A DNA stretch of 10,856 nucleotides from Desulfobacterales bacterium (lineage in GTDB: Bacteria; Desulfobacterota; Desulfobacteria; Desulfobacterales; Desulfobacteraceae). The DNA lies in NCBI GenBank assembly GCA_022361095.1, contig JAKSBO010000908.1, positions 1 to 10,856 of the forward strand. The letters run 5' to 3'. Made by a program: the position numbers and the translations under genes. Shown here one piece after another: positions 1 to 10,856 of the stretch (position 1 is its first letter; each line of letters begins with the position of its first letter). Below the pieces are notes generated by a model. It did no database searches. It was not told where the DNA came from and saw nothing but the letters and a program-made list of their open reading frames with translations.

Positions 1-80
1 ACCAGGGAAAAGGGGATCAGATACTTTAGTTCATGGCGTTCAAGAAGGGAGGGCATCTCCTGTTGACGGGACGTTCTCAT
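1..80 (-). CDS. VTC-domain (polyphosphate polymerase-like) protein, N-terminus only
   Basis: Only the first 26 codons and part of the next lie in the window. They read MRTSRQQEMPSLLERHELKY followed by LIPFSL. The R-H-E-L-K-Y segment matches the opening strand of VTC domains, the triphosphate-tunnel fold that in yeast Vtc4 polymerises polyphosphate; bacterial VTC proteins are often encoded beside DUF4956 genes. The ATG overlaps the TGA of the preceding gene (ATGA), and a strong AAGGAGG site sits 10 bases upstream inside that gene's last codons, so translation is probably coupled. The downstream partner of the DUF4956 gene at 2580-3263 supports the family call. The catalytic basic and acidic tunnel residues are outside the window, so activity cannot be judged. 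Confidence 0.72.
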   Translation of the reverse strand, partial: MRTSRQQEMPSLLERHELKYLIPFSL

Positions 81-1426
81 TGAACAAGTTCCTCCTTTTC
101 ATCCGGCGACAGGTAATTCATCCAAGGCGTTTCACCCAGTTTACCGGTGATGTCTAAAAGCTCGATATAGGTTGTGAATATCCTGCGGGAAAGTTTGGCC
201 CGAAGGATATCCGCGCCTAACATACTTTCCCTGAATTTCAATAAGGTCAGCGGGTCTGTTCCTTTTGTCTGAAGCAGACGGTCAAAGGCTGCTGTGCTGA
301 AGCTGTTCGTTTTTTTCTGTTGGAAGGCCGTATATCGTTCGATCTGGTGATGGAGTTTTTGCCGGAGGACGGGAATCGTCTGCCGGATTTCACGTTCCAG
401 GGCATATTGCCGGCTTCTAGCTTTCATGCTTTCAAGTTTTCGCTGGCGAAGCGTATCCCGGCTACCGGCACCAATGGGGATGGAAATACCGAATTCAATG
501 GAAAAGGCATCCGCAAAATCATCTTTATCGGCTGCGTTGAATGCAGTTTCAACAAAGCTGATGAGGCGATTTTTTTCTGCAACCTCCTGCAAATACAGGG
601 CCTCTGCCTTGACAACTTGAGTTTTTGCCCGGGTGAGATAAATATTTTCATCCTCCGGATTTATTTGAATGGCAAGGATGCGTTGGGCCAACTGATCGAC
701 CGACAGAAGATGGCCGGTATCGAAAAAGACATTCCCGCCATAACCACTTTGTAAATTAACCCTTTTTGCCACGGCATCCTGTTGGTTTTTCAGCTCCATG
801 ATATCCATCTGGAGGACCAAGCGCCGGTTTTCCACATCTGCCAGTTCTCCGGCATCAAAATCAGGCGTATCAACTTGGCGTTTCAGGACGTGCTCCCAAT
901 CTTCGTAAAGAAGATTCAGGGCATCATAAAGTATTCTCATCTCCTTGAAATAGAGAAAATCGACAACGGTCATGTACCGGTTCTTCAAGGCCGTATGCAG
1001 CAGAGATGCCAGTTGAATCGCTTCGGATTGAAGCCGTGCATCAAGCACCGCCCTTTCACCCTTGATCTCATCCCACCCCCTTGGTTTGAATCGTAATACG
1101 TACTTTTGCCGGTTGCTTTCAAATTTATCAATCGTGAATCTGAATTCAGGATCTTCAATAAATGAAATGGCGCCTGTCTCTTTCAGGAACCGGATGCGTT
1201 GATTTCGGGGAGAGAGGGACAGGTCCTCAAAAGCGGTGGATAGAAAGTCTTTGATGGAGATCGGCACCCTCTTGTCTGCAGCGTCCTCTGCATCAAGGAT
1301 ATGACCTGCAGAAGCTGCCGCGGCCGCGCCGGAGGCGTTAACAATGTCAGCGCTGCCAATGCCGGGAAAGCCGGAATTGAGGATAAAAAGCAAAGCCGGA
1401 ATTGTCGCCAATTGCATTGATTTCAT
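77..1426 (-). CDS. TolC-like outer-membrane factor
   Basis: A 449-residue exported protein that probably forms an outer-membrane/periplasmic channel. The start chosen is the ATG at 1426, giving MKSMQLATIP, because GGGTGATAAC precedes it; a TTG four codons upstream has no ribosome site. Residues 1 to about 26 are a signal peptide with a hydrophobic core ending near GIGSA. The rest is mainly long alpha-helix with heptad-like character. The second half has the TolC pattern: a beta-strand segment FGISIPIGAGSRDT, then helices rich in Arg, Gln and Glu, a Y-x5-Q turn, a LLQTKG segment, and a final helix ending in YIELLDITGKL. The first TolC repeat is divergent, so this is a remote member. It lies 20 bases after the HlyD-like adaptor gene and overlaps the VTC-domain gene. 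A coiled-coil periplasmic protein that is not a channel is the alternative. Confidence 0.68.
   Translation of the reverse strand: MKSMQLATIPALLFILNSGFPGIGSADIVNASGAAAAASAGHILDAEDAADKRVPISIKDFLSTAFEDLSLSPRNQRIRFLKETGAISFIEDPEFRFTIDKFESNRQKYVLRFKPRGWDEIKGERAVLDARLQSEAIQLASLLHTALKNRYMTVVDFLYFKEMRILYDALNLLYEDWEHVLKRQVDTPDFDAGELADVENRRLVLQMDIMELKNQQDAVAKRVNLQSGYGGNVFFDTGHLLSVDQLAQRILAIQINPEDENIYLTRAKTQVVKAEALYLQEVAEKNRLISFVETAFNAADKDDFADAFSIEFGISIPIGAGSRDTLRQRKLESMKARSRQYALEREIRQTIPVLRQKLHHQIERYTAFQQKKTNSFSTAAFDRLLQTKGTDPLTLLKFRESMLGADILRAKLSRRIFTTYIELLDITGKLGETPWMNYLSPDEKEELVQ
91..97 (-). promoter_or_regulatory. Ribosome binding site of the VTC-domain gene
   Basis: AAGGAGG on the minus strand, 10 bases before the ATG at 80-78. 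It lies within the final codons of the TolC-like gene, which fixes the VTC start and points to translational coupling. Confidence 0.7.
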
Positions 1427-1446
1427 GTTATCACCCAATATTATCG

Positions 1447-2553
1447 TTATATGCTGTGCGCTTCAGAGTTGTCTGATTCTGATGCATAACTTTCCAGGGT
1501 AAACCACTTTTTAAGCCATGCCAGATAGCCGAGTGCATCGTGATTTGCCGTCTGAATCATCACTTTTTCTCCCAAAAGAAATGGATTTCCGTCCGGCAGG
1601 TGAATTTCAACTTCCCGTCCCCACAATTGCATTTCAGGTCGTTTTTTCAGTCTTAAGGGATATTGGATGATTCTGGAGCCCACGCCCACGATTTCGCCTT
1701 TGACCCGTTTGCCTTCATCGGTAAAGGCGATCACGTCCACCCGATCTCCGATGAATGCCCGGTTATAGATATTTTCATGGATATATCCACGGACATAGGA
1801 AGGCGAGCGGGTATGCAGTGTCAGGATCGGCTGGAACGGAGAAATTTTTTCCCCTGCCTTGCAATGAATGGAACCGATAATCCCGTCAATGGGGGCAAGG
1901 ATCTGCAGAGAGGCTTTTTCTTTCTCAAGGAGTTCCAGCTCCTTTTTCAGGCTTTCCTGGTGGATGGTTTCCGGGGTTTGTGTGGATGCCAGTTTGGCCG
2001 TTAAATCATCAATCAGCGTTTGAAATCGTTTTTTGGTCAGGTCCCGTTCCTGTTTCAAATTCTCAATTTCAATCTCCATGGCACCGGGTTTTTCACCACG
2101 TTTCGTTGCCCTGGAAGGGTTGGGAATACTCTTCAGGCCGGAGACCATCTCTTTGTTAAAGGAATACCGGGAAGTCATCTGCTCGATTTTATGGTCGATT
2201 TCACTGACATTGACTTTTTTATCAGCCCTGAGTTGCCGAATCTGAGATTTGATCTCATCTCTGTTACAGGTATCGCGACTTTTCAGCTCTTTGAGCTGAT
2301 GTGTGATCTCATTGAGTTTCATTGTCAAGGCCGGCCGTTGCAATTCCACCAGGACACGTCCTTTCGGAATCTCCTGGCCGGGCAGGACATGAATCCTCCC
2401 AATTTCAACGGAGTTCTCTGAATTGACAATCACTTCTCGTGTTTCCGCAATCCCTTGAAACTCTGTGGCTTCTTCTTTTCCGAGGAATAATGACGTTTTG
2501 ACCACCACAAGAAACACTAAAATCCATGTAAGATAGAGTAGTTTTTTACCCAA
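1447..2553 (-). CDS. HlyD-family periplasmic adaptor (membrane fusion) protein
   Basis: A 368-residue adaptor that would link an inner-membrane protein to an outer-membrane channel. Residues 5-24 form a single N-terminal membrane anchor. Two half lipoyl/barrel-sandwich motifs occur at about 43-75 (GRIHVLPGQEIPKGRVLVEL) and 215-247 (LAPIDGIIGSIHCKAGEKIS). They bracket a helical hairpin rich in Lys, Glu and Leu at about 76-214, and a beta-barrel domain follows at about 250-340. The start is a TTG at 2553: AAAGGAG lies 8 bases upstream and no in-frame ATG precedes the anchor. The gene follows the DUF4956 gene by 26 bases and precedes the TolC-like gene by 20. No ABC transporter or RND pump is encoded beside it, which is unusual for this family. 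Confidence 0.85.
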   Translation of the reverse strand: MGKKLLYLTWILVFLVVVKTSLFLGKEEATEFQGIAETREVIVNSENSVEIGRIHVLPGQEIPKGRVLVELQRPALTMKLNEITHQLKELKSRDTCNRDEIKSQIRQLRADKKVNVSEIDHKIEQMTSRYSFNKEMVSGLKSIPNPSRATKRGEKPGAMEIEIENLKQERDLTKKRFQTLIDDLTAKLASTQTPETIHQESLKKELELLEKEKASLQILAPIDGIIGSIHCKAGEKISPFQPILTLHTRSPSYVRGYIHENIYNRAFIGDRVDVIAFTDEGKRVKGEIVGVGSRIIQYPLRLKKRPEMQLWGREVEIHLPDGNPFLLGEKVMIQTANHDALGYLAWLKKWFTLESYASESDNSEAHSI

Positions 2554-2561
2554 TATAAGGT

Positions 2562-2568
2562 CTCCTTT
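2562..2568 (-). promoter_or_regulatory. Ribosome binding site supporting a TTG start
   Basis: AAAGGAG on the minus strand, 8 bases before the TTG at 2553-2551. It is the reason for choosing TTG as the start of the HlyD-like adaptor. Confidence 0.7.
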
Positions 2569-2579
2569 ATTAATGGCCT

Positions 2580-3263
2580 TTATAATTCCACCGTAGTTTC
2601 CTGCAACAGGAGGCTGACGCCTTTGATGTGCCCAATGCCATTGAGTTCCTCCAGCAGTTCCTCTTTGCCTTTTTTATATTTCATTTTAATGTGGTAGGCA
2701 TAGTCGAGACGACTGCCCTGGGCAATATCACGCAGGGTGATCAGTGCAAAGAGCTTGCAGTTATTTTGCAGGATGTTATTGAGTTTTTCCTTGCTTTCCG
2801 GATCATTTTCCATATTAAACCGCAACATGCCGTCATAGTACCCAGTCTGCCCAAAAGGAGAGTGGTAAAGGATAAAGGCGGCCAGGCAAAATCCAACCGT
2901 TCCCACAACGGCGATATCGTACCCCCTTACGCCGGTGGCAATGCCGGAAGCCAGTGACGCAAACATAAAAATGATATCCCTCGGATCTTTGAAACTGGTG
3001 CGAAACCGGATGATGGCCAGTGCGCCCATCATACCAAGGCCGCTTGCAAGGCTGTCGCCAATGGCCTGCATCACCGTTGCAGCCACAATGGCGCTGAGAA
3101 TCAGAGCCTGCACAAAATTTCTTGAGTAGGAAAGCCCCCGAAAAGTCTTTTCATACACCAGGGCAATGAGCGTGGAGAGAAGAAACGAAATCAACAGCGT
3201 AAAAAGTGCCGTGATGAATGACGTATTTGCAGAGCTGTTTTGAAGGGTTAATGCATCAATCAT
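2580..3263 (-). CDS. DUF4956 integral membrane protein
   Basis: A 227-residue inner-membrane protein of unknown biochemical function. The family hallmark is visible at residues 80-99 (GALAIIRFRTSFKDPRDIIF). Hydrophobic segments at about 15-36, 48-70, 96-112 and 116-134 give roughly four or five membrane passes, followed by a soluble C-terminal domain at about 143-227 with a mixed alpha/beta pattern, probably cytoplasmic. The ATG at 3263 is preferred because GGGAGAG ends 5 bases upstream; a TTG 42 bases earlier lacks a ribosome site. DUF4956 genes commonly neighbour VTC-domain polyphosphate polymerases, as here. As first gene of the operon, and the only multi-pass protein in it, it is the likely inner-membrane platform for the adaptor and outer-membrane factor. 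That role is inferred. Confidence 0.88.
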   Translation of the reverse strand: MIDALTLQNSSANTSFITALFTLLISFLLSTLIALVYEKTFRGLSYSRNFVQALILSAIVAATVMQAIGDSLASGLGMMGALAIIRFRTSFKDPRDIIFMFASLASGIATGVRGYDIAVVGTVGFCLAAFILYHSPFGQTGYYDGMLRFNMENDPESKEKLNNILQNNCKLFALITLRDIAQGSRLDYAYHIKMKYKKGKEELLEELNGIGHIKGVSLLLQETTVEL

Positions 3264-3384
3264 GGTGTCTCTCCCGGATAGATAAATTTTTCGAAATGTT
3301 AGCAAAAATGGACATTAATTCGCCGCCCCGGCCAAGATTCAATGTGGGCGCAATGGGCAAACGCTTAAAACGATACGCTAACAA

Positions 3385-3431
3385 TAATCTAATAATTATC
3401 TAATAAACAATTGAGGTAGAAATGTGATCAA
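3385..3431 (-). promoter_or_regulatory. Tandem 11-bp repeat and weak candidate promoter upstream of the DUF4956 operon
   Basis: Two adjacent 11-bp units on the minus strand, TTATTAGATAA (3396-3406) and TTATTAGATTA (3385-3395), differ at one base and are phased by about one helical turn, as in sites for response-regulator dimers. A weak sigma70-like pair, TTGATC (3426-3431) and TTTATT (3402-3407) with an 18-base gap, overlaps them. The repeat is seen directly; its regulatory role is inferred. It is about 120 bases upstream of the operon start. Confidence 0.35.
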
Positions 3432-3725
3432 ATTGCGAGGAAAATACGTGTTTTGAATATAATGCTTTTGTAATTTACCTCACGGCTTTGTGGTATTTGG
3501 GTATTTCTTAACGTCAAGCGATAGAAAACAGAGGATCAAATTCCGGGGAAAAGACCGGCGACCAGCCTTCAGAACCGGTGCCGGCTGGAGAGAAAACGTG
3601 GGCTAAGACGGGGGAAAACATGGAAAGCGTGATGGGGCTCACCTGAAGAAGAGGATCCCACCCGGGAGCAAGGGAAAAACTTACAGCACTGCAGAAAGCA
3701 GTCAGGCCGGCCAGATATTAAACGG
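3432..3725. other. Intergenic stretch with no recognised gene
   Basis: The stretch holds no gene I can name. From about 3512 the plus strand is purine-rich and has open but startless frames: one runs to a TGA near 3640, and a second in another frame is open from there to about 3814. It contains small hairpins, for example an ACTGC/GCAGT stem with a 5-base loop near 3686-3700 and a CCAGCC/GGCTGG pair near 3560-3586. It may be debris of a decayed gene or mobile element; I found no riboswitch consensus. Confidence 0.4.
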
Positions 3726-3818
3726 TTATGTTTCAAACACCATTTCTCCGTCACGACCTTTATATATGGTGCCCCATACATTCCAATTTATATGGAAGTA
3801 CGGATAAGTCACTAAATT
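3726..3818 (-). pseudogene. C-terminal relic of a Frd/Apr-type flavoprotein
   Basis: Read on the minus strand up to a TAA at 3728-3726, this stretch encodes about 30 residues including NWNVWGTIYKGRDGEMVFET. It aligns with the last 30-odd residues of the intact flavoprotein at 5183-6928 (NWNAWINIYKGRDGSMKFEK), sharing NWN, W, IYKGRDG, M and FE, with a YP a few residues upstream in both. An in-frame TGA stands just upstream and no further homology is visible, so the rest of the gene is gone. It is a relic of a paralogue, in the same orientation as the intact gene, and implies a past duplication or replacement with deletion at this locus. Confidence 0.7.
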
Positions 3819-3837
3819 TCATCTATATTTTGTTTCG

Positions 3838-3872
3838 GGGCGAGCCTGGATGTTGATAGGCCAGGTCGGCCC
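3838..3872 (-). terminator. Hairpin downstream of the SH3-domain gene
   Basis: A 12-bp stem with two mismatches (GGGCcGaCCTGG against CCAGGctCGCCC) and an 11-base loop begins 15 bases after the SH3 gene's stop. No T-run follows on the minus strand, so an intrinsic terminator is only possible; it could instead protect the transcript's 3' end. Confidence 0.3.
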
Positions 3873-3887
3873 ATGGCGTTGGTTGGT

Positions 3888-4536: not shown

Positions 4537-4848
4537 CTAGTCGTTTCCCTGGGGGCCTCCACCCTGCCCCCTCCCCTGGGGCGCATGATCCGGAATGAGC
4601 AGAAGTCTGTCGCCGTTTCTGTCCTGTCTGCATGTTCCGGTAATTGTCTCTCCATTGGGAGCTTCAAACGATGCAGTATCTCCTTCGGCCATTTCTTCAC
4701 AGGCAGTAAATGCTTCCTGGGGAGGTCCGCCCTGGGGTCTGCCGTTATTATTCCGGGCATATGCCGGACCTGTATTCAGGTTAAATGCGATCATAACCCC
4801 TGCCAGGGCCAGTGTAATGGTTGCCGGTTTGCAGATATGAATTGTCAT
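4537..4848 (-). CDS. Small secreted protein with two cysteines
   Basis: A 103-residue protein with a clear signal peptide (residues 1 to about 31, ending GPAYA). The mature part starts with a Gly/Pro/Asn-rich stretch, then a compact domain PPQEAFTACEEMAEGDTASF and GETITGTCRQ, and ends in a Gly/Gln-rich tail. Cys50 and Cys73 are the only cysteines after the signal region and could form a disulfide. I recall similar short periplasmic proteins of unknown function with an EAF-x-AC ... G-D-T ... GTC pattern; I cannot name the family. AAGGAGA precedes the ATG by 8 bases. It is the first gene of a pair with the SH3-domain protein. The palindromic repeat at 4874-5038 ends 26 bases upstream, so its promoter must lie in or beyond that repeat. 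Confidence 0.7.
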   Translation of the reverse strand: MTIHICKPATITLALAGVMIAFNLNTGPAYARNNNGRPQGGPPQEAFTACEEMAEGDTASFEAPNGETITGTCRQDRNGDRLLLIPDHAPQGRGQGGGPQGND

Positions 4849-5182: not shown

Positions 5183-6928
5183 CTAAGACGGCCAGGTGCC
5201 AAAGGGCTGTTTTTCAAATTTCATTGAACCGTCACGTCCCTTGTAGATATTGATCCAGGCATTCCAGTTTTTGGTGTCCGTTTCAGGATAATCCAGACGA
5301 TAGTGGCTGCAGCGGCTTTCTTTGCGCATCAATGATGCCCTGAGCTTCATTTCAGCGCTGATAATCATGTTGGCGGTTTCAAAGGCCAATCGTAATTCAT
5401 GGAGATTCGCAGCCTTAAGCATTGGCATGTGATGGTCTCTCAACTCTTCAACATAGGCCAGCGCCGCTTTAAGCAGTCTCTCTTTTTTGATATAGATAAT
5501 GAAATTGGGAATCATGATGCCCTGCAGAATCTGGGTTACCCATGCAGGACTGTACCCCGCTTCCCTTTTTAACGGTGCAAGTATCTCGGCGTTTACTTCA
5601 TCTATTTTGGATTTGGAAATTTCCGGCATTTCAATATGTTGACAGTATTCAGCCGCTGCCTTCCCTGCAACCCCGCCCTGCACCGCAGAACCGGCCAATG
5701 AGGAGCCGATCTGGGTATAGATTGCACCGGCCATATAGGACCCCAATGCATCTCCGGCTGCATACAACCCCGGTATATTTGATTCGCACTTTTCGTTGAC
5801 GGGAACAAGGCCTTCTGATTTGTGAATGGCCATGCCGGCCGAAGAACCGCCCACCAGGGTTCCTGCCATTCCCGGAGGGGCACCGCCCTCATCGTGCCGG
5901 CCGGAAGGACCGGGCCGCCCTTCGCCTTTGGGAGGGCGGTTTCGTTTAAATTCATCCGGGACAGAGGGTCCGCCTTCCGGTTCTTTTCCACCGGCGGCTC
6001 CGGGAATGCCCATCTGAACGGGATTTCCGTTCATATATGCCTTGTAATTCAAATCCACACCCAGATCATGGTGTACTTCGACCCCTGTTATGCCGGGCTT
6101 TCTTTCAAACATGCCATGCCAGCCGTCAAAACAGGCGGCAGCGTTTTCTGCCTGGCCGGGATGCCCGTCGTTCCACTCCTTGCCGGTCACCTTGGCACCG
6201 ATGTTATACGCCATGACAGTGCCGTCGTGGGTTAGGTCACAAATGGGAAATCCATTGGGTTTGAAGCCGCCTGCCCCGGTGCACAGGATGACGCTTTTGG
6301 CCTTGAAAAAATGAATTATTTCTTTATCCAGACTGAAACCGGCTGCACCGCAGATCCGTCCTTTTTCCTTGATCAAATGGGTAATGACGATTCTCTCCAG
6401 AACAGGGATGTTTCTCTTTTTGACCGGGTTGTTAAAACTCTTGTTATATAGGGGGGAATTAAAAAAGCCCCACGCCTTGAGTTCATTAACGCGGGCCAGG
6501 GAATGCTCGGCCATTTGCCGGGTATATACCGGATTATTGGTGCCCAATGCAGACCGGGAAACAGTATCCACAAATTCATCGAGGCTCAATTTTTCAGAAT
6601 CAGGATCAAATGCGAATATCCCCTTTGCAAAAGGTGTCTGCCCTGAGGAACCCAGACGGCCTTTGGAGACAAGCATTACTTTGGCACCTGCATCATGTGC
6701 CTTAACAGCAGCAAATAATCCTGCCATCCCGCCGCCGATAACCAGGACATCCGTTTCGTTTTCGATATTTGTTATTTTGTCCATATCAATTTCAGGGACA
6801 TTGGTGCTGCACATGCCCTGCTCTGGGAACACCCCAAACGCAGCCATTGCCGCAAGCCCTGCGGCCCCACCTGCAAGGGTCATGAATCTGCGGCGCGACA
6901 CATCTTTTAATTTTTGTGAAGATGTCAT
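5183..6928 (-). CDS. Tat-exported FAD flavoprotein, fumarate/adenylylsulfate reductase superfamily
   Basis: A 581-residue FAD oxidoreductase, probably periplasmic. The N-terminus has a twin-arginine signal (SRRRFMTLAGG, residues 11-21, with an alanine-rich core). FAD contacts are the dinucleotide motif VIGGGMAG (63-70), the SKG-x-LGSSG segment (88-95) and the second FAD motif GLYAAGDALG (387-396). The C-terminal domain (about 440-581) has the family's ESRCSHYRLDYPETD signature at 537-551. Where fumarate reductases and succinate dehydrogenases carry HGANRLGG, this protein has AGAIYTQIGSS (400-410), so the catalytic arginine of that motif is absent and fumarate is not the likely substrate. Residues about 309-355 are a Gly/Pro/Glu-rich insert. 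GGAGG lies 5 bases before the ATG. It is last in an operon with the cytochrome and ferredoxin, which should supply electrons. Confidence 0.85.
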   Translation of the reverse strand: MTSSQKLKDVSRRRFMTLAGGAAGLAAMAAFGVFPEQGMCSTNVPEIDMDKITNIENETDVLVIGGGMAGLFAAVKAHDAGAKVMLVSKGRLGSSGQTPFAKGIFAFDPDSEKLSLDEFVDTVSRSALGTNNPVYTRQMAEHSLARVNELKAWGFFNSPLYNKSFNNPVKKRNIPVLERIVITHLIKEKGRICGAAGFSLDKEIIHFFKAKSVILCTGAGGFKPNGFPICDLTHDGTVMAYNIGAKVTGKEWNDGHPGQAENAAACFDGWHGMFERKPGITGVEVHHDLGVDLNYKAYMNGNPVQMGIPGAAGGKEPEGGPSVPDEFKRNRPPKGEGRPGPSGRHDEGGAPPGMAGTLVGGSSAGMAIHKSEGLVPVNEKCESNIPGLYAAGDALGSYMAGAIYTQIGSSLAGSAVQGGVAGKAAAEYCQHIEMPEISKSKIDEVNAEILAPLKREAGYSPAWVTQILQGIMIPNFIIYIKKERLLKAALAYVEELRDHHMPMLKAANLHELRLAFETANMIISAEMKLRASLMRKESRCSHYRLDYPETDTKNWNAWINIYKGRDGSMKFEKQPFGTWPS

Positions 6929-6939
6929 TTATACCTCCG

Positions 6940-7566
6940 TTATTTCTTTGATTTTTTAAACGTATATGTTTTCAGAAGAAGCAGTATTCCACCTGCAGTG
7001 AGCATGCTGATTAGAATTGACATGGATAGGTTTGCATGCCTGCCAAGATCAATGGTGTGCCATACGGCAGTAGAAATAAACAGCATCGCCAGAATACCGT
7101 GAAAAAGCCGCCAGGTCTTGTATGTCATGGGCAGCTTGTCCCGTAAAAAAGAAGTGATACCCAATACCAGCATCAGGCACCATGCAATGATGCCCGTCAC
7201 AACCCCCTGGTTCAGGGTTGTGATGATGGTAAAAAACGCATCAACAGGGGCAACCCCTGCTTCAAAACAACGCGGGATCACAAGATAAAGCGGATGTAAG
7301 GATAAAATGGTAATACATATATACCCAATAAATTTATGATAGTTTACCACACGGCTCATCTTAAGATTTGTCAGAACGGTCCTGCTGGAGCGTGTCCAAA
7401 AAAACTGTCCCATCATCTGCCAAAAGGCCAGAATGGTTATAATGCAAAGAGATTCTTTTAATAGGGAACGTTCTTGGAAATTGCCCGTTACCCAGATAAG
7501 TAATGGTATGCCGGTGAATACCAGTAAGGAGTGTCTGAAAAATCTATTTTTTATATAGGTCCCCAT
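6940..7566 (-). CDS. Ferric-reductase-like diheme membrane cytochrome b
   Basis: A 208-residue membrane protein with about six hydrophobic segments. Two H-x13-H pairs, His77/His91 (NYHKFIGY ... LHPLY) and His156/His170 (RLFHGILA ... VWHTI), match the bis-heme ligand spacing of the ferric reductase/NOX/MsrQ-type transmembrane domain. No flavin or NADPH domain follows, so it needs a partner for electron entry and exit. The ATG at 7566 is chosen because GGGGGTGA lies just upstream and an earlier in-frame start would run into the ferredoxin gene. It begins one base after the ferredoxin's stop and ends 11 bases before the flavoprotein's ATG. The likely role is to carry electrons across the membrane from quinol or ferredoxin to the periplasmic flavoprotein; the direction is inferred. 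Confidence 0.82.
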   Translation of the reverse strand: MGTYIKNRFFRHSLLVFTGIPLLIWVTGNFQERSLLKESLCIITILAFWQMMGQFFWTRSSRTVLTNLKMSRVVNYHKFIGYICITILSLHPLYLVIPRCFEAGVAPVDAFFTIITTLNQGVVTGIIAWCLMLVLGITSFLRDKLPMTYKTWRLFHGILAMLFISTAVWHTIDLGRHANLSMSILISMLTAGGILLLLKTYTFKKSKK

Positions 7567-7567
7567 T

Positions 7568-7783
7568 TCACCCCCATGAAACAATAACCGGAATAGATTT
7601 TTCCGGTGAAATGGTGATTGCGTCAACAGGACAATACATCCTGCACAAATGGCATATCTGGCAATCCGCCGGATATGCGATAAATGCTTTTTTGTTTTCT
7701 GGGTCTTTGCGGATGACGTCGGTGGGGCATGTTTCCATACATGTTCCGCAACCAATACATCCCTGGATCTTTTCTATACTCAT
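7568..7783 (-). CDS. 2[4Fe-4S] ferredoxin-type protein
   Basis: A 71-residue protein with two complete C-x2-C-x2-C-x3-CP motifs (CIGCGTCMETCP and CQICHLCRMYCP), which bind two [4Fe-4S] clusters. It resembles the small iron-sulfur partner of Apr-type flavoproteins. No signal peptide is present. The ATG at 7783 follows TTGGAGA by 6 bases; a TTG one codon earlier is less likely. It is first in the operon with the cytochrome and flavoprotein. Lacking an export signal, it either works in the cytoplasm, passing electrons to the cytochrome, or is carried out with the Tat-bearing flavoprotein. The sequence alone cannot decide between these. Confidence 0.88.
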   Translation of the reverse strand: MSIEKIQGCIGCGTCMETCPTDVIRKDPENKKAFIAYPADCQICHLCRMYCPVDAITISPEKSIPVIVSWG

Positions 7784-9439: not shown

Positions 9440-10856
9440 TCAGTATCTTCCCAGTACCCTCAAGGTTTCTACCTTTTCCGAGAGGGCATTGAGCACCGGG
9501 TCGGCACATGTGTCATCCAGATCTGCCTCCAGGTCTGCATAAAACAGGTATTCCCATGGTTTTCCCGCCACGGGCCGTGATTCCAGTTTGACCAGGTTGA
9601 TATGGTGGTCGCTGAAAACCTGCATGACCTCAAGCAGGGCACCCGGGCGGTTGCCTGTTGAAAAAATGATGGATGTTTTATCCGCCTTTTTATGTCCCTT
9701 AAATTCCCTGGCAATCACGGCAAACCGCGTAAAATTCATTGGATTGTCTTCAATGGATTCGTGGGCAACGGCCATGTCAAAAATTTCAGCCGCCAGGGCA
9801 GGGCCAATGGCTGCCACTGAGGGATCAAGGAGCTTGGCCTGGTTTACGGCAGAGACACCCGTGCGCACCGGTAAAATTTCAGTGGTTGTCATCTGGACCA
9901 GGTAATTCTGGCATTGGGCAATGGCGTGGGCCGGGGCAAGGATTGTTTTAACCGACGAAACGTCAGTCCCCGGATGGGTGATCAGGGCATGTTTGATACG
10001 AATGGTGATCTCACCGATGATTTTCAGATTGTGGCTTTGGAGCAGATCATAGTTTTCGTGGACAGACCCGGACAGGGAATTTTCCACAGGAACCACGCCG
10101 TATGATGCGGTGTTGTTCCTAACGGATGCAAAGACCTCTTTGAATGACATCATTGCCACCGGGGTGACATCCTCTCCGAAATAGGAGAGGCAGGCCTTGT
10201 GGGAATAGGTTCCCGGTTCCCCGGTGATGGCGCAGGCTGCCGCATTCCGGGTGCGGGGTGACGGGATAAGTTCCTTTTTTTTCAGGTAGTCAAAATCCAG
10301 TTGCTTGCCAACCACCGGCGCAATCACATAAATATCCCTGGTCAGGTTCCCGAATTGTTCGGGATAAAGGCTTTGGGGGCCGCCGGAAAGGGCTTTGTCC
10401 GGATCTGTATGTACCTCAATCATCAGGGCGTCGGCACCGGCCGCCACTGCGGCCCGGGCCATGGGTGCCACCTTTTCACGGATGCCTGTGGCATGGCTTG
10501 GGTCTATGATAATGGGCAAGTGTGTAAGCTTTTTTAAGACCGGGATGGCAGACAGGTCCAGGGTATTCCGGGTATAGGGCTCAAAGGTTCTGATACCCTG
10601 TTCACACAGGATGATATTGGTGTTGCCTGCTGCGGCAATGTATTCGGCGGACATAAGCCACTCCTGGACCGTGGCGGCAAGGCCGCGGTTGAGTATAACC
10701 GGCTTGGTCAATTTACCGGCGCATTTGAGCAGCTCGACGTTCTGCATGCTCCGGGCACCGATCTGGACCAGATCCACATATTTTTCCATCATCCGGGCCT
10801 GGGCCGGAGAGGTCATCTCCGTCACCACGCCAAGCCCGGTCGCTTCCCGGACCCGG
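9440..10856 (-). CDS. Fused DAHP synthase / prephenate dehydratase with ACT domain (5' end missing)
   Basis: 471 residues are visible; the reading frame stays open to the window edge (REATGLGVVTEMTSPAQ), so the N-terminus is missing. Positions below count from the GTG at 10828. Residues 1 to about 158 are a type I DAHP synthase of the AroF/AroG-like beta class: LVQIGARSMQN, ILCEQGIRTFE, RNTLDLSAIP, IIDPSHATG (109-115) and IEVHTDPDKALSGGPQSL. Residues about 200-375 are prephenate dehydratase: GEPGTYSHKA, VPVENSLSGSVHENYDLL and NFTRF with the catalytic Thr367. Residues about 385-462 are an ACT domain with RPGALLEV and the phenylalanine-binding ESRP motif. It would make the first shikimate-pathway intermediate and phenylpyruvate, with Phe feedback. 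No chorismate mutase domain is seen between them; one could lie upstream. Confidence 0.88.
   Translation of the reverse strand, partial: RVREATGLGVVTEMTSPAQARMMEKYVDLVQIGARSMQNVELLKCAGKLTKPVILNRGLAATVQEWLMSAEYIAAAGNTNIILCEQGIRTFEPYTRNTLDLSAIPVLKKLTHLPIIIDPSHATGIREKVAPMARAAVAAGADALMIEVHTDPDKALSGGPQSLYPEQFGNLTRDIYVIAPVVGKQLDFDYLKKKELIPSPRTRNAAACAITGEPGTYSHKACLSYFGEDVTPVAMMSFKEVFASVRNNTASYGVVPVENSLSGSVHENYDLLQSHNLKIIGEITIRIKHALITHPGTDVSSVKTILAPAHAIAQCQNYLVQMTTTEILPVRTGVSAVNQAKLLDPSVAAIGPALAAEIFDMAVAHESIEDNPMNFTRFAVIAREFKGHKKADKTSIIFSTGNRPGALLEVMQVFSDHHINLVKLESRPVAGKPWEYLFYADLEADLDDTCADPVLNALSEKVETLRVLGRY

What the first reader, a model, noticed from the sequence alone, without database searches (positions are those of the whole stretch)
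1..3263. DUF4956-HlyD-TolC-VTC operon: possible trans-envelope polyphosphate-related machine
Four genes on one strand, with 20-26 base gaps and an ATGA overlap, encode a multi-pass DUF4956 protein, a periplasmic adaptor, an outer-membrane factor and a VTC-domain protein. DUF4956-VTC pairing is known, mostly without envelope-spanning partners. Here the set has the layout of a tripartite export system but no ABC, RND or MFS pump is in view. The idea that DUF4956 is the inner-membrane platform, and that a polymer made by the VTC protein (polyphosphate or an analogue) is exported or anchored, is inference.
Basis: partly seen in the sequence, partly recalled or inferred. Interest (0 to 1): 0.75.

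Follow-up and report, generated by a model that had tools for sequence, protein, structure and literature searches.

The report
Pump-less trans-envelope polyphosphate-type operon
A conserved bacterial gene set couples a polyphosphate-polymerase-like enzyme and a small membrane protein to a tube that spans the cell envelope, with no recognisable pump, and so may build a phosphate polymer inside the cell and push it out to the surface.

Summary
On the minus strand are DUF4956, a HlyD-type adaptor, a TolC-type outer-membrane factor (OMF) and the first 26 codons of a VTC gene; the window is a whole contig, cut there. Two same-genus genomes carry the complete DUF4956-HlyD-OMF-VTC run, with a secreted CotH/lamin-tail gene convergent behind it and no pump seen nearby. 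Across 84 loci chosen as nearest relatives, HlyD accompanies DUF4956 in 82, OMF in 79 (81 with two seen in other calls), and VTC in 51 of 57 non-Bacteroidota loci, the six misses being contig ends. Bacteroidota have the block without VTC beside it (0 of 27). No ABC, RND or MFS pump was a regular neighbour. DUF4956-VTC-CotH without envelope genes is in print for Gram-positives; the HlyD-OMF form did not show in my literature searches. Best reading: VTC makes a phosphate polymer, DUF4956 passes it through the inner membrane, and HlyD-OMF carries it out to CotH/LTD surface proteins. Architecture and selection are shown; substrate and transport are inferred. Against it: one relative lost HlyD and most of OMF but keeps DUF4956 and VTC.

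The parts
2580..3263 (-). DUF4956 protein, 227 aa: membrane helices, then a beta-alpha-beta-beta-alpha-beta (ferredoxin/ACT-like by my reading) C-terminal domain; invariant RFRT motif (R86-T89)
   Evidence: Pfam PF16316 51.3 bits; alignment A2 of 62; AlphaFold2 model pLDDT 76, pTM 0.57; weak MgtC match in 22 of 62 members
1447..2553 (-). HlyD-type periplasmic adaptor, 368 aa, N-terminal hydrophobic anchor
   Evidence: HlyD_D23 34.5 and HlyD_3 24.5 bits, both over cut-off; 90% identical to L117
77..1438 (-). TolC-type outer-membrane factor, 453 aa from TTG, 449 aa from the ATG at 1426
   Evidence: no hit above cut-off itself; 28 of 53 family members match OEP PF02321
1..80 (-). start of the VTC (polyphosphate-polymerase-like) gene, cut by the contig end; ATGA overlap with the OMF
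   Evidence: 24 of 26 residues identical to L117 VTC; full-length relatives match PF09359 over cut-off
3264..3887 (.). non-coding stretch upstream of the operon, holding a degenerate copy of the flavoprotein C-terminus; no CotH gene here
   Evidence: tblastn 47% over 47 aa with stops; CotH HMM 0 matches in G000

Best explanation
A synthase-driven export machine without a classical pump. VTC (cytosol) polymerises phosphate from a nucleotide; DUF4956 sits in the inner membrane in the place that the membrane domains hold in the yeast VTC complex and passes the growing chain; the HlyD-type adaptor and the TolC-type factor prolong the path through periplasm and outer membrane; secreted CotH kinase-like and lamin-tail proteins act on, bind or use the product at the surface. 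Shown: the gene set and its mostly fixed order, its recurrence, purifying selection, conserved VTC catalytic residues, no pump as a regular neighbour in the screens made, export-type N-termini on the CotH/LTD proteins. Inferred: the polymer is polyphosphate, DUF4956 is the conduit, polymerisation supplies the drive, the product leaves the cell.
For: Complete operons in G041 and G040, no pump among nine of their neighbours scanned. HlyD 82 of 84 (L009 set by hand), OMF 79 of 84 (81 with L009 and L052; L118 counted though a fragment), VTC 51 of 57 outside Bacteroidota, all six misses at contig ends. HlyD-OMF-VTC is the usual run; DUF4956 stands before it in 40 loci and after it in 6 of those with all four in one run. 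68 of the 69 HlyD-labelled DUF4956 rows form one group (100/100). VTC alignment of 33: R81, R83, E216 invariant and aligned to Vtc4 (3g3q, E 1.7e-7) at what I take to be the residues of its impaired R264A/R266A/E426N form (PMC9911596, passages); that paper supports coupled synthesis and translocation in yeast. HlyD or TolC genes also stand beside DUF4956 outside that group: VTC-DUF4956-HlyD in L140; a weakly HlyD-like protein, DUF4956 and TolC on a Hymenobacter plasmid. CotH/LTD neighbours (37 taken by hand of 65): 35 have a hydrophobic N-terminus, 15 a lipobox by pattern, 5 a Por secretion tail. Purifying selection on all four.
Against: G026 lost HlyD and most of OMF but keeps open DUF4956 and VTC (dN/dS 0.10-0.20 against its relatives), so the inner pair may work alone, or decay has begun; its CotH is also broken. 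Bacteroidota have the block with VTC adjacent in 0 of 27, and 3 of 22 such genomes showed no VTC at all. Two Gram-positive plasmid sets and four Desulfobacterota sets have no HlyD/OMF. The close relatives also carry PPK1, so VTC is not needed for ordinary polyP. In L109 the order is HlyD-VTC-OMF. I know of no activity shown for a member.
Confidence: 0.4

Rival explanations
1. DUF4956-HlyD-OMF exports some other small molecule, lipid or glycan, and VTC is a cytosolic TTM enzyme that modifies or energises that substrate or regulates the exporter; no polyphosphate leaves the cell.
For: Bacteroidota keep the block with no adjacent VTC in 27 of 27 loci. 19 of 22 of those genomes have VTC elsewhere; of eight such places read out at length, four are DUF4956-CotH-VTC trios without HlyD/OMF and four show VTC with neither DUF4956 nor CotH by my HMMs. 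DUF4956-VTC-CotH sits among glycosyltransferase genes in L143 and beside Pel operons (PMC7112168 passages).
Against: Outside Bacteroidota VTC stays linked in 51 of 57 loci, the rest cut by contig ends, and the polymerase catalytic residues are invariant in 33 of 33.
Confidence: 0.27
2. The block is a secretion route for the CotH/lamin-tail surface proteins, or a surface-matrix assembly line in which CotH phosphorylates matrix components; VTC/DUF4956 supply a phosphate-rich matrix component or cofactor.
For: CotH and/or LTD genes near the block in 52 of 84 loci; CotH of L116 ends in a dockerin and lies beside a cohesin gene; a Cthe_2159 carbohydrate-binding protein beside VTC-DUF4956 in L134; a GGDEF-EAL protein upstream in L116 and L118.
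Against: Most CotH/LTD proteins examined have their own export-type N-terminus (35 of 37), so they need no HlyD-TolC path; only 4 of 27 Bacteroidota loci have CotH/LTD nearby.
Confidence: 0.18
3. An ordinary tripartite efflux set whose ABC, RND or MFS pump is encoded elsewhere; DUF4956 and VTC are bystanders.
For: HlyD and OMF families as such are typical of pumps; some Fibrobacter loci have an ABC-2 exporter downstream. A pump far away in the genome was not searched for.
Against: That ABC-2 set has its own adaptor and OMF; HlyD accompanies DUF4956 in 82 of 84 loci with no recurrent pump gene in the screens made.
Confidence: 0.1

Closest known systems
CotH / poly-phosphate polymerase / DUF4956 / DUF4832 accessory set beside pelDEADAFG in Gram-positives (PMC7112168, passages)
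   Same: DUF4956, VTC-type polymerase and CotH as neighbours; in bifidobacteria a dual diguanylate cyclase/phosphodiesterase joins, as a GGDEF-EAL gene does upstream in L116 and L118
   Different: no HlyD or TolC is named in the passages seen; there the set adjoins a Pel operon, here no glycosyltransferase is in the window
NELoc-2 of Clostridium perfringens (PMC2879425, passages)
   Same: VTC genes, a 222-226 aa protein called tubulin/FtsZ (DUF4956 by my inference from the matching order in L144) and CotH
   Different: Gram-positive, no HlyD or OMF in the rows seen
Yeast VTC complex (Vtc1/Vtc3/Vtc4; PMC9911596, passages)
   Same: TTM-type polymerase domain with the same catalytic residues; proposed coupling to a membrane channel
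   Different: no SPX domain in the two bacterial proteins scanned, no Vtc1-type gene seen in the operon; DUF4956 and an envelope conduit instead
Tripartite efflux pumps and type I secretion (HlyD/MFP + TolC/OMF)
   Same: adaptor and outer-membrane factor, adjacent
   Different: no ABC, RND or MFS inner-membrane pump seen; a DUF4956 protein takes that place
Synthase-dependent exopolysaccharide export (recalled)
   Same: idea of polymerisation-driven export through an envelope conduit
   Different: no glycosyltransferase synthase; VTC instead
MgtC family (PF02308)
   Same: 22 of 62 DUF4956 proteins match weakly at E<=0.05 (best 1.4e-4); membrane helices followed by a small alpha/beta domain (MgtC layout recalled)
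   Different: window protein only E 0.03, under the cut-off

Membership tests
Tripartite efflux / type I secretion | periplasmic adaptor (MFP) | tested here: met
   HlyD_D23 and HlyD_3 over cut-off
Tripartite efflux / type I secretion | TolC-type outer-membrane factor | tested here: met
   28 of 53 family members match OEP; the window protein alone has no hit above cut-off
Tripartite efflux / type I secretion | ABC, RND or MFS inner-membrane pump in the operon | tested here: not met
   none in the operons of L116, L117 or among nine of their neighbours scanned; no recurrent pump in partial screens of the other loci, except an ABC-2 set with its own adaptor and OMF in a Fibrobacter subset
VTC polyphosphate polymerase | VTC/TTM domain with Vtc4 catalytic residues | tested here: met
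   PF09359 over cut-off in L004 and in three same-genus genomes; R81, R83, E216 invariant in 33; in the window itself only 26 codons are visible
VTC polyphosphate polymerase | SPX domain and Vtc1-type membrane domain | tested here: not met
   only PF09359 in the two VTC proteins scanned, L004 and L134; lengths 263-292 aa in 33
VTC polyphosphate polymerase | makes polyphosphate | not testable with these tools
   needs enzyme assay
CotH-PPP-DUF4956 set | all three genes clustered | tested here: met
   in L116 and L117 (CotH convergent) and L002, L006, L008 and others; in the window CotH is not seen and the contig ends inside VTC
Synthase-dependent exopolysaccharide system | glycosyltransferase synthase | tested here: not met
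   no glycosyltransferase among the ten window proteins scanned

The most novel reading that the evidence does not exclude
Diderm bacteria export polyphosphate straight from the cytosolic VTC enzyme to the outside through DUF4956-HlyD-TolC, and surface-located CotH kinase-like proteins use it as phosphate donor where no ATP exists: an extracellular phosphorylation system fed by an exported phosphate polymer.
Probability: 0.1. Interest if true: 0.92.

Novelty: new variant of a known kind. Interest (0 to 1): 0.62.

Why it matters
How bacteria put polyphosphate on or outside their surface is, as I recall, open (capsular polyP of Neisseria gonorrhoeae is mentioned in abstracts listed). A conserved operon that joins a VTC-type polymerase to an envelope-spanning conduit gives a direct genetic handle on that question. 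It would also give DUF4956, a widespread unknown, a role, and would show HlyD/TolC working without an ABC, RND or MFS pump.

Tried and rejected
Chance or annotation artefact: rejected by recurrence and purifying selection. A truncated gene other than VTC: rejected. A conventional pump just beyond the window: not seen beside the two complete same-genus operons. CotH in the window's own upstream stretch: not there; the stretch holds a degenerate flavoprotein end. Same-genus co-occurrence as independent proof: VTC and CotH occur in exactly the three other genomes that have DUF4956 (3 of 19 each), but a small secreted gene shows the same pattern (4 of 19 with the window's own), so these genomes are probably one subclade and I give the pattern little weight. 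VTC as the only polyP enzyme: rejected, PPK1 is in 14 of 19 including G000, G026, G040, G041. PDB profile searches with the OMF and DUF4956 alignments gave nothing significant. Plasmid search gave five distant DUF4956 hits; three were read, one (L146) had no annotation and one (H2, Nonomuraea) was not opened. Limits of the pump screens: the Pfam scan covered 60 neighbours picked by hand, 58 of the 291 same-strand unlabelled neighbours plus two from L024, and displayed 25 of 66 families; the motif and many-TM screen covered 83 of 84 loci, L009 being skipped by the script; RND and MFS were sought only through those. Genome-wide pump searches were not made.
Full report
WHAT IS THERE. The window is one whole contig (C814) of a draft genome of 5.2 Mb. 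On its minus strand lie DUF4956 (3263-2580), a HlyD-type adaptor (2553-1447), an OMF-like protein (1438 or 1426 to 77) and the first 26 codons of a further gene that overlaps the OMF stop as ATGA. Pfam supports DUF4956 and HlyD over cut-off; the OMF has no hit above cut-off alone, but 28 of 53 family members match OEP. The 26 residues match the start of a full VTC protein of a same-genus genome at 24 of 26. VTC and CotH HMMs find nothing in this genome, as expected if the contig break removed them.

COMPLETE COPIES. Of 19 same-genus genomes 4 have this DUF4956, the window's own included. G041 (L116) and G040 (L117) have DUF4956-HlyD-OMF-VTC in one run with a CotH+lamin-tail gene convergent behind VTC. 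Further neighbours differ between them; nine of these scanned with Pfam are a helicase, two nitroreductases, transposase-type proteins, a DruA-type protein, an alcohol dehydrogenase, a ferredoxin-type protein and, upstream of the operon in L116, a GGDEF-EAL protein (one like it also stands upstream in L118); none is a pump. The CotH of L116 ends in a dockerin and lies beside a cohesin gene. G026 (L118) has lost HlyD (15 residues left) and most of OMF (residues 317-453 left), and its CotH is broken, while DUF4956 and VTC are open frames. This is the strongest single fact against an obligatory envelope conduit, though the broken CotH fits decay of the whole system.

SPREAD. A scan of genome contigs gave 139 relatives, of which the best 80 were kept. 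With the window and L116-L118 I examined 84 loci within 8 kb. Desulfobacterota 12: HlyD 11, OMF 12 (L118 a fragment), VTC 11. Fibrobacterota 39: HlyD 39 (L009 set by hand), OMF 36 by filter, plus L009 and L052 seen, VTC 36. Bacteroidota 27: HlyD 27, OMF 27, VTC 0. Others 6: HlyD 5, OMF 4, VTC 4. The groups were set from record titles; L003 and L006, under others, prove to lie in the window's phylum. All six non-Bacteroidota loci without VTC end at a contig edge; for two of them (L005, L010) VTC was found on another contig of the same genome, next to OMF (L108) or between HlyD and OMF (L109). HlyD-OMF-VTC is the usual run, with DUF4956 before it in 40 loci and after it in 6. CotH and/or LTD is near in 52 of 84.

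BACTEROIDOTA. In 22 genomes searched, 19 have a VTC elsewhere. Of eight such places read out at length, four (L102-L105) are DUF4956-CotH-VTC trios without HlyD/OMF and four (L106, L107, L110, L111) show VTC with neither DUF4956 nor CotH by my HMMs; two short ones (L082, L085) have VTC beside a DUF4956. So the envelope block and VTC are separable.

SAMPLING. The 84 loci are nearest relatives only. In an even draw from the phylum DUF4956 is rare, 10 of 395 genomes.

TREE. In a tree of 81 DUF4956 rows (16 Fibrobacter near-duplicates dropped; five labels set by hand) 68 of 69 HlyD-labelled rows form one group at 100/100; L140 lies outside it, and the Hymenobacter plasmid L145 (weakly HlyD-like protein, DUF4956, TolC) also lies outside on a long branch. 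The HlyD partnership may therefore have arisen more than once, but the long branches make this unsure.

PARTS. VTC: 40 invariant columns in 33 sequences; the profile finds Vtc4 (3g3q, E 1.7e-7), and R81, R83, E216 align with an R.R pair and a glutamate that I take for R264, R266 and E426, the residues changed in the impaired mutant (numbering placed by me). DUF4956: AlphaFold2 model of moderate confidence (pLDDT 76, pTM 0.57) with five long helices and a beta-alpha-beta-beta-alpha-beta end; 22 of 62 members match MgtC weakly. HlyD: 13 of 82 ORFs are 627-731 aa with an extra C-terminal domain, a separate gene in L017-L019, resembling phytase-like or DUF3616 propellers below cut-off; the window and the two same-genus relatives that still have HlyD lack it. 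CotH/LTD proteins: of 37 taken by hand from 65, 23 match CotH, 27 LTD, 5 a Por tail and 2 a dockerin; 35 have a hydrophobic N-terminus and 15 a lipobox pattern (simple heuristics).

NO REGULAR PUMP SEEN. ABC-2 permeases appear in 4 of 60 neighbours scanned; in L024 they follow their own OEP and HlyD. An ABC-ATPase motif pair occurs in 4 of 83 loci screened, at no shared place; many-TM proteins recur at a shared place only upstream in Fibrobacter, with scattered others. These are partial screens (see Tried and rejected).

SELECTION. Pairwise dN/dS in the genus is 0.05-0.14 for DUF4956, 0.20-0.24 for HlyD, 0.26-0.35 for OMF, 0.16-0.20 for VTC, 0.30-0.38 for CotH.

MECHANISM. In yeast, VTC makes polyP in the cytosol and is thought to feed it into a membrane channel as it grows (PMC9911596, passages). 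The simplest reading of this operon is the same principle with DUF4956 in the channel's place and HlyD-OMF as extension. Nothing here shows the substrate, the pore or the export; confidence 0.4.

NOVELTY. Three papers in the library hold the word DUF4956; I saw passages of all three. PMC7112168 describes CotH, poly-phosphate polymerase, DUF4956 and DUF4832 beside Pel operons in Gram-positives; no HlyD or TolC appears in the passages seen. PMC2879425 (passages) lists VTC and CotH genes in C. perfringens NELoc-2; PMC11677781 (passages) reports polyphosphate-polymerase-domain and CotH genes there too. PMC10434189 (passage) lists a DUF4956 and a DUF2490 gene together in Bacteroides. The listings showed no account of DUF4956 or VTC with HlyD/TolC. 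Subscription journals and preprint servers are mostly not held, so this is not proof of absence. I rate it a new variant of a known kind.

Noticed in passing
window 4537-4848 (-): Small secreted protein (103 aa, conserved PP.EA(F/Y)TACE and TG.C stretches) recurs in L002, L008 (directly before CotH) and L117, and in the same 4 of 19 genus genomes as DUF4956; possible accessory, but subclade-confounded and not adjacent everywhere.
   Followed up: partly
L116:11897-13525 and L118:6815-8461: GGDEF-EAL protein upstream of the DUF4956 operon in two same-genus relatives, recalling the dual cyclase/phosphodiesterase beside the bifidobacterial set in PMC7112168.
   Followed up: partly
window 3306-3887: Degenerate copy of the C-terminus of the neighbouring flavoprotein (47% over 47 aa, with stops), a trace of rearrangement upstream of the operon.
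   Followed up: partly
window 5183-7755 (-): Flavoprotein (FAD_binding_2 + Succ_DH_flav_C) next to a ferric-reductase-like membrane protein: a likely flavin redox pair.
   Followed up: no
window 9440-10855 (-): DAHP synthase (cut by the contig end), prephenate dehydratase and ACT domain in one frame.
   Followed up: no
L002:10700-12754 and 12 other loci: HlyD with an extra C-terminal propeller-like domain (phytase-like/DUF3616 below cut-off), a separate gene in L017-L019.
   Followed up: partly
L116:4168-7021: CotH kinase-like protein with lamin-tail and dockerin domains beside a cohesin-domain gene.
   Followed up: partly
L024:15908-20679: Fibrobacter subset: OEP-HlyD-ABC2 exporter genes right after the VTC/LTD genes.
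   Followed up: partly
L134:4903-9406: VTC-DUF4956 with a weak outer-membrane barrel match and a Cthe_2159 carbohydrate-binding protein: another possible envelope variant.
   Followed up: no
L002:14290-15110: VTC of Desulfamplus magnetovallimortis lies in two pieces in the public record.
   Followed up: no
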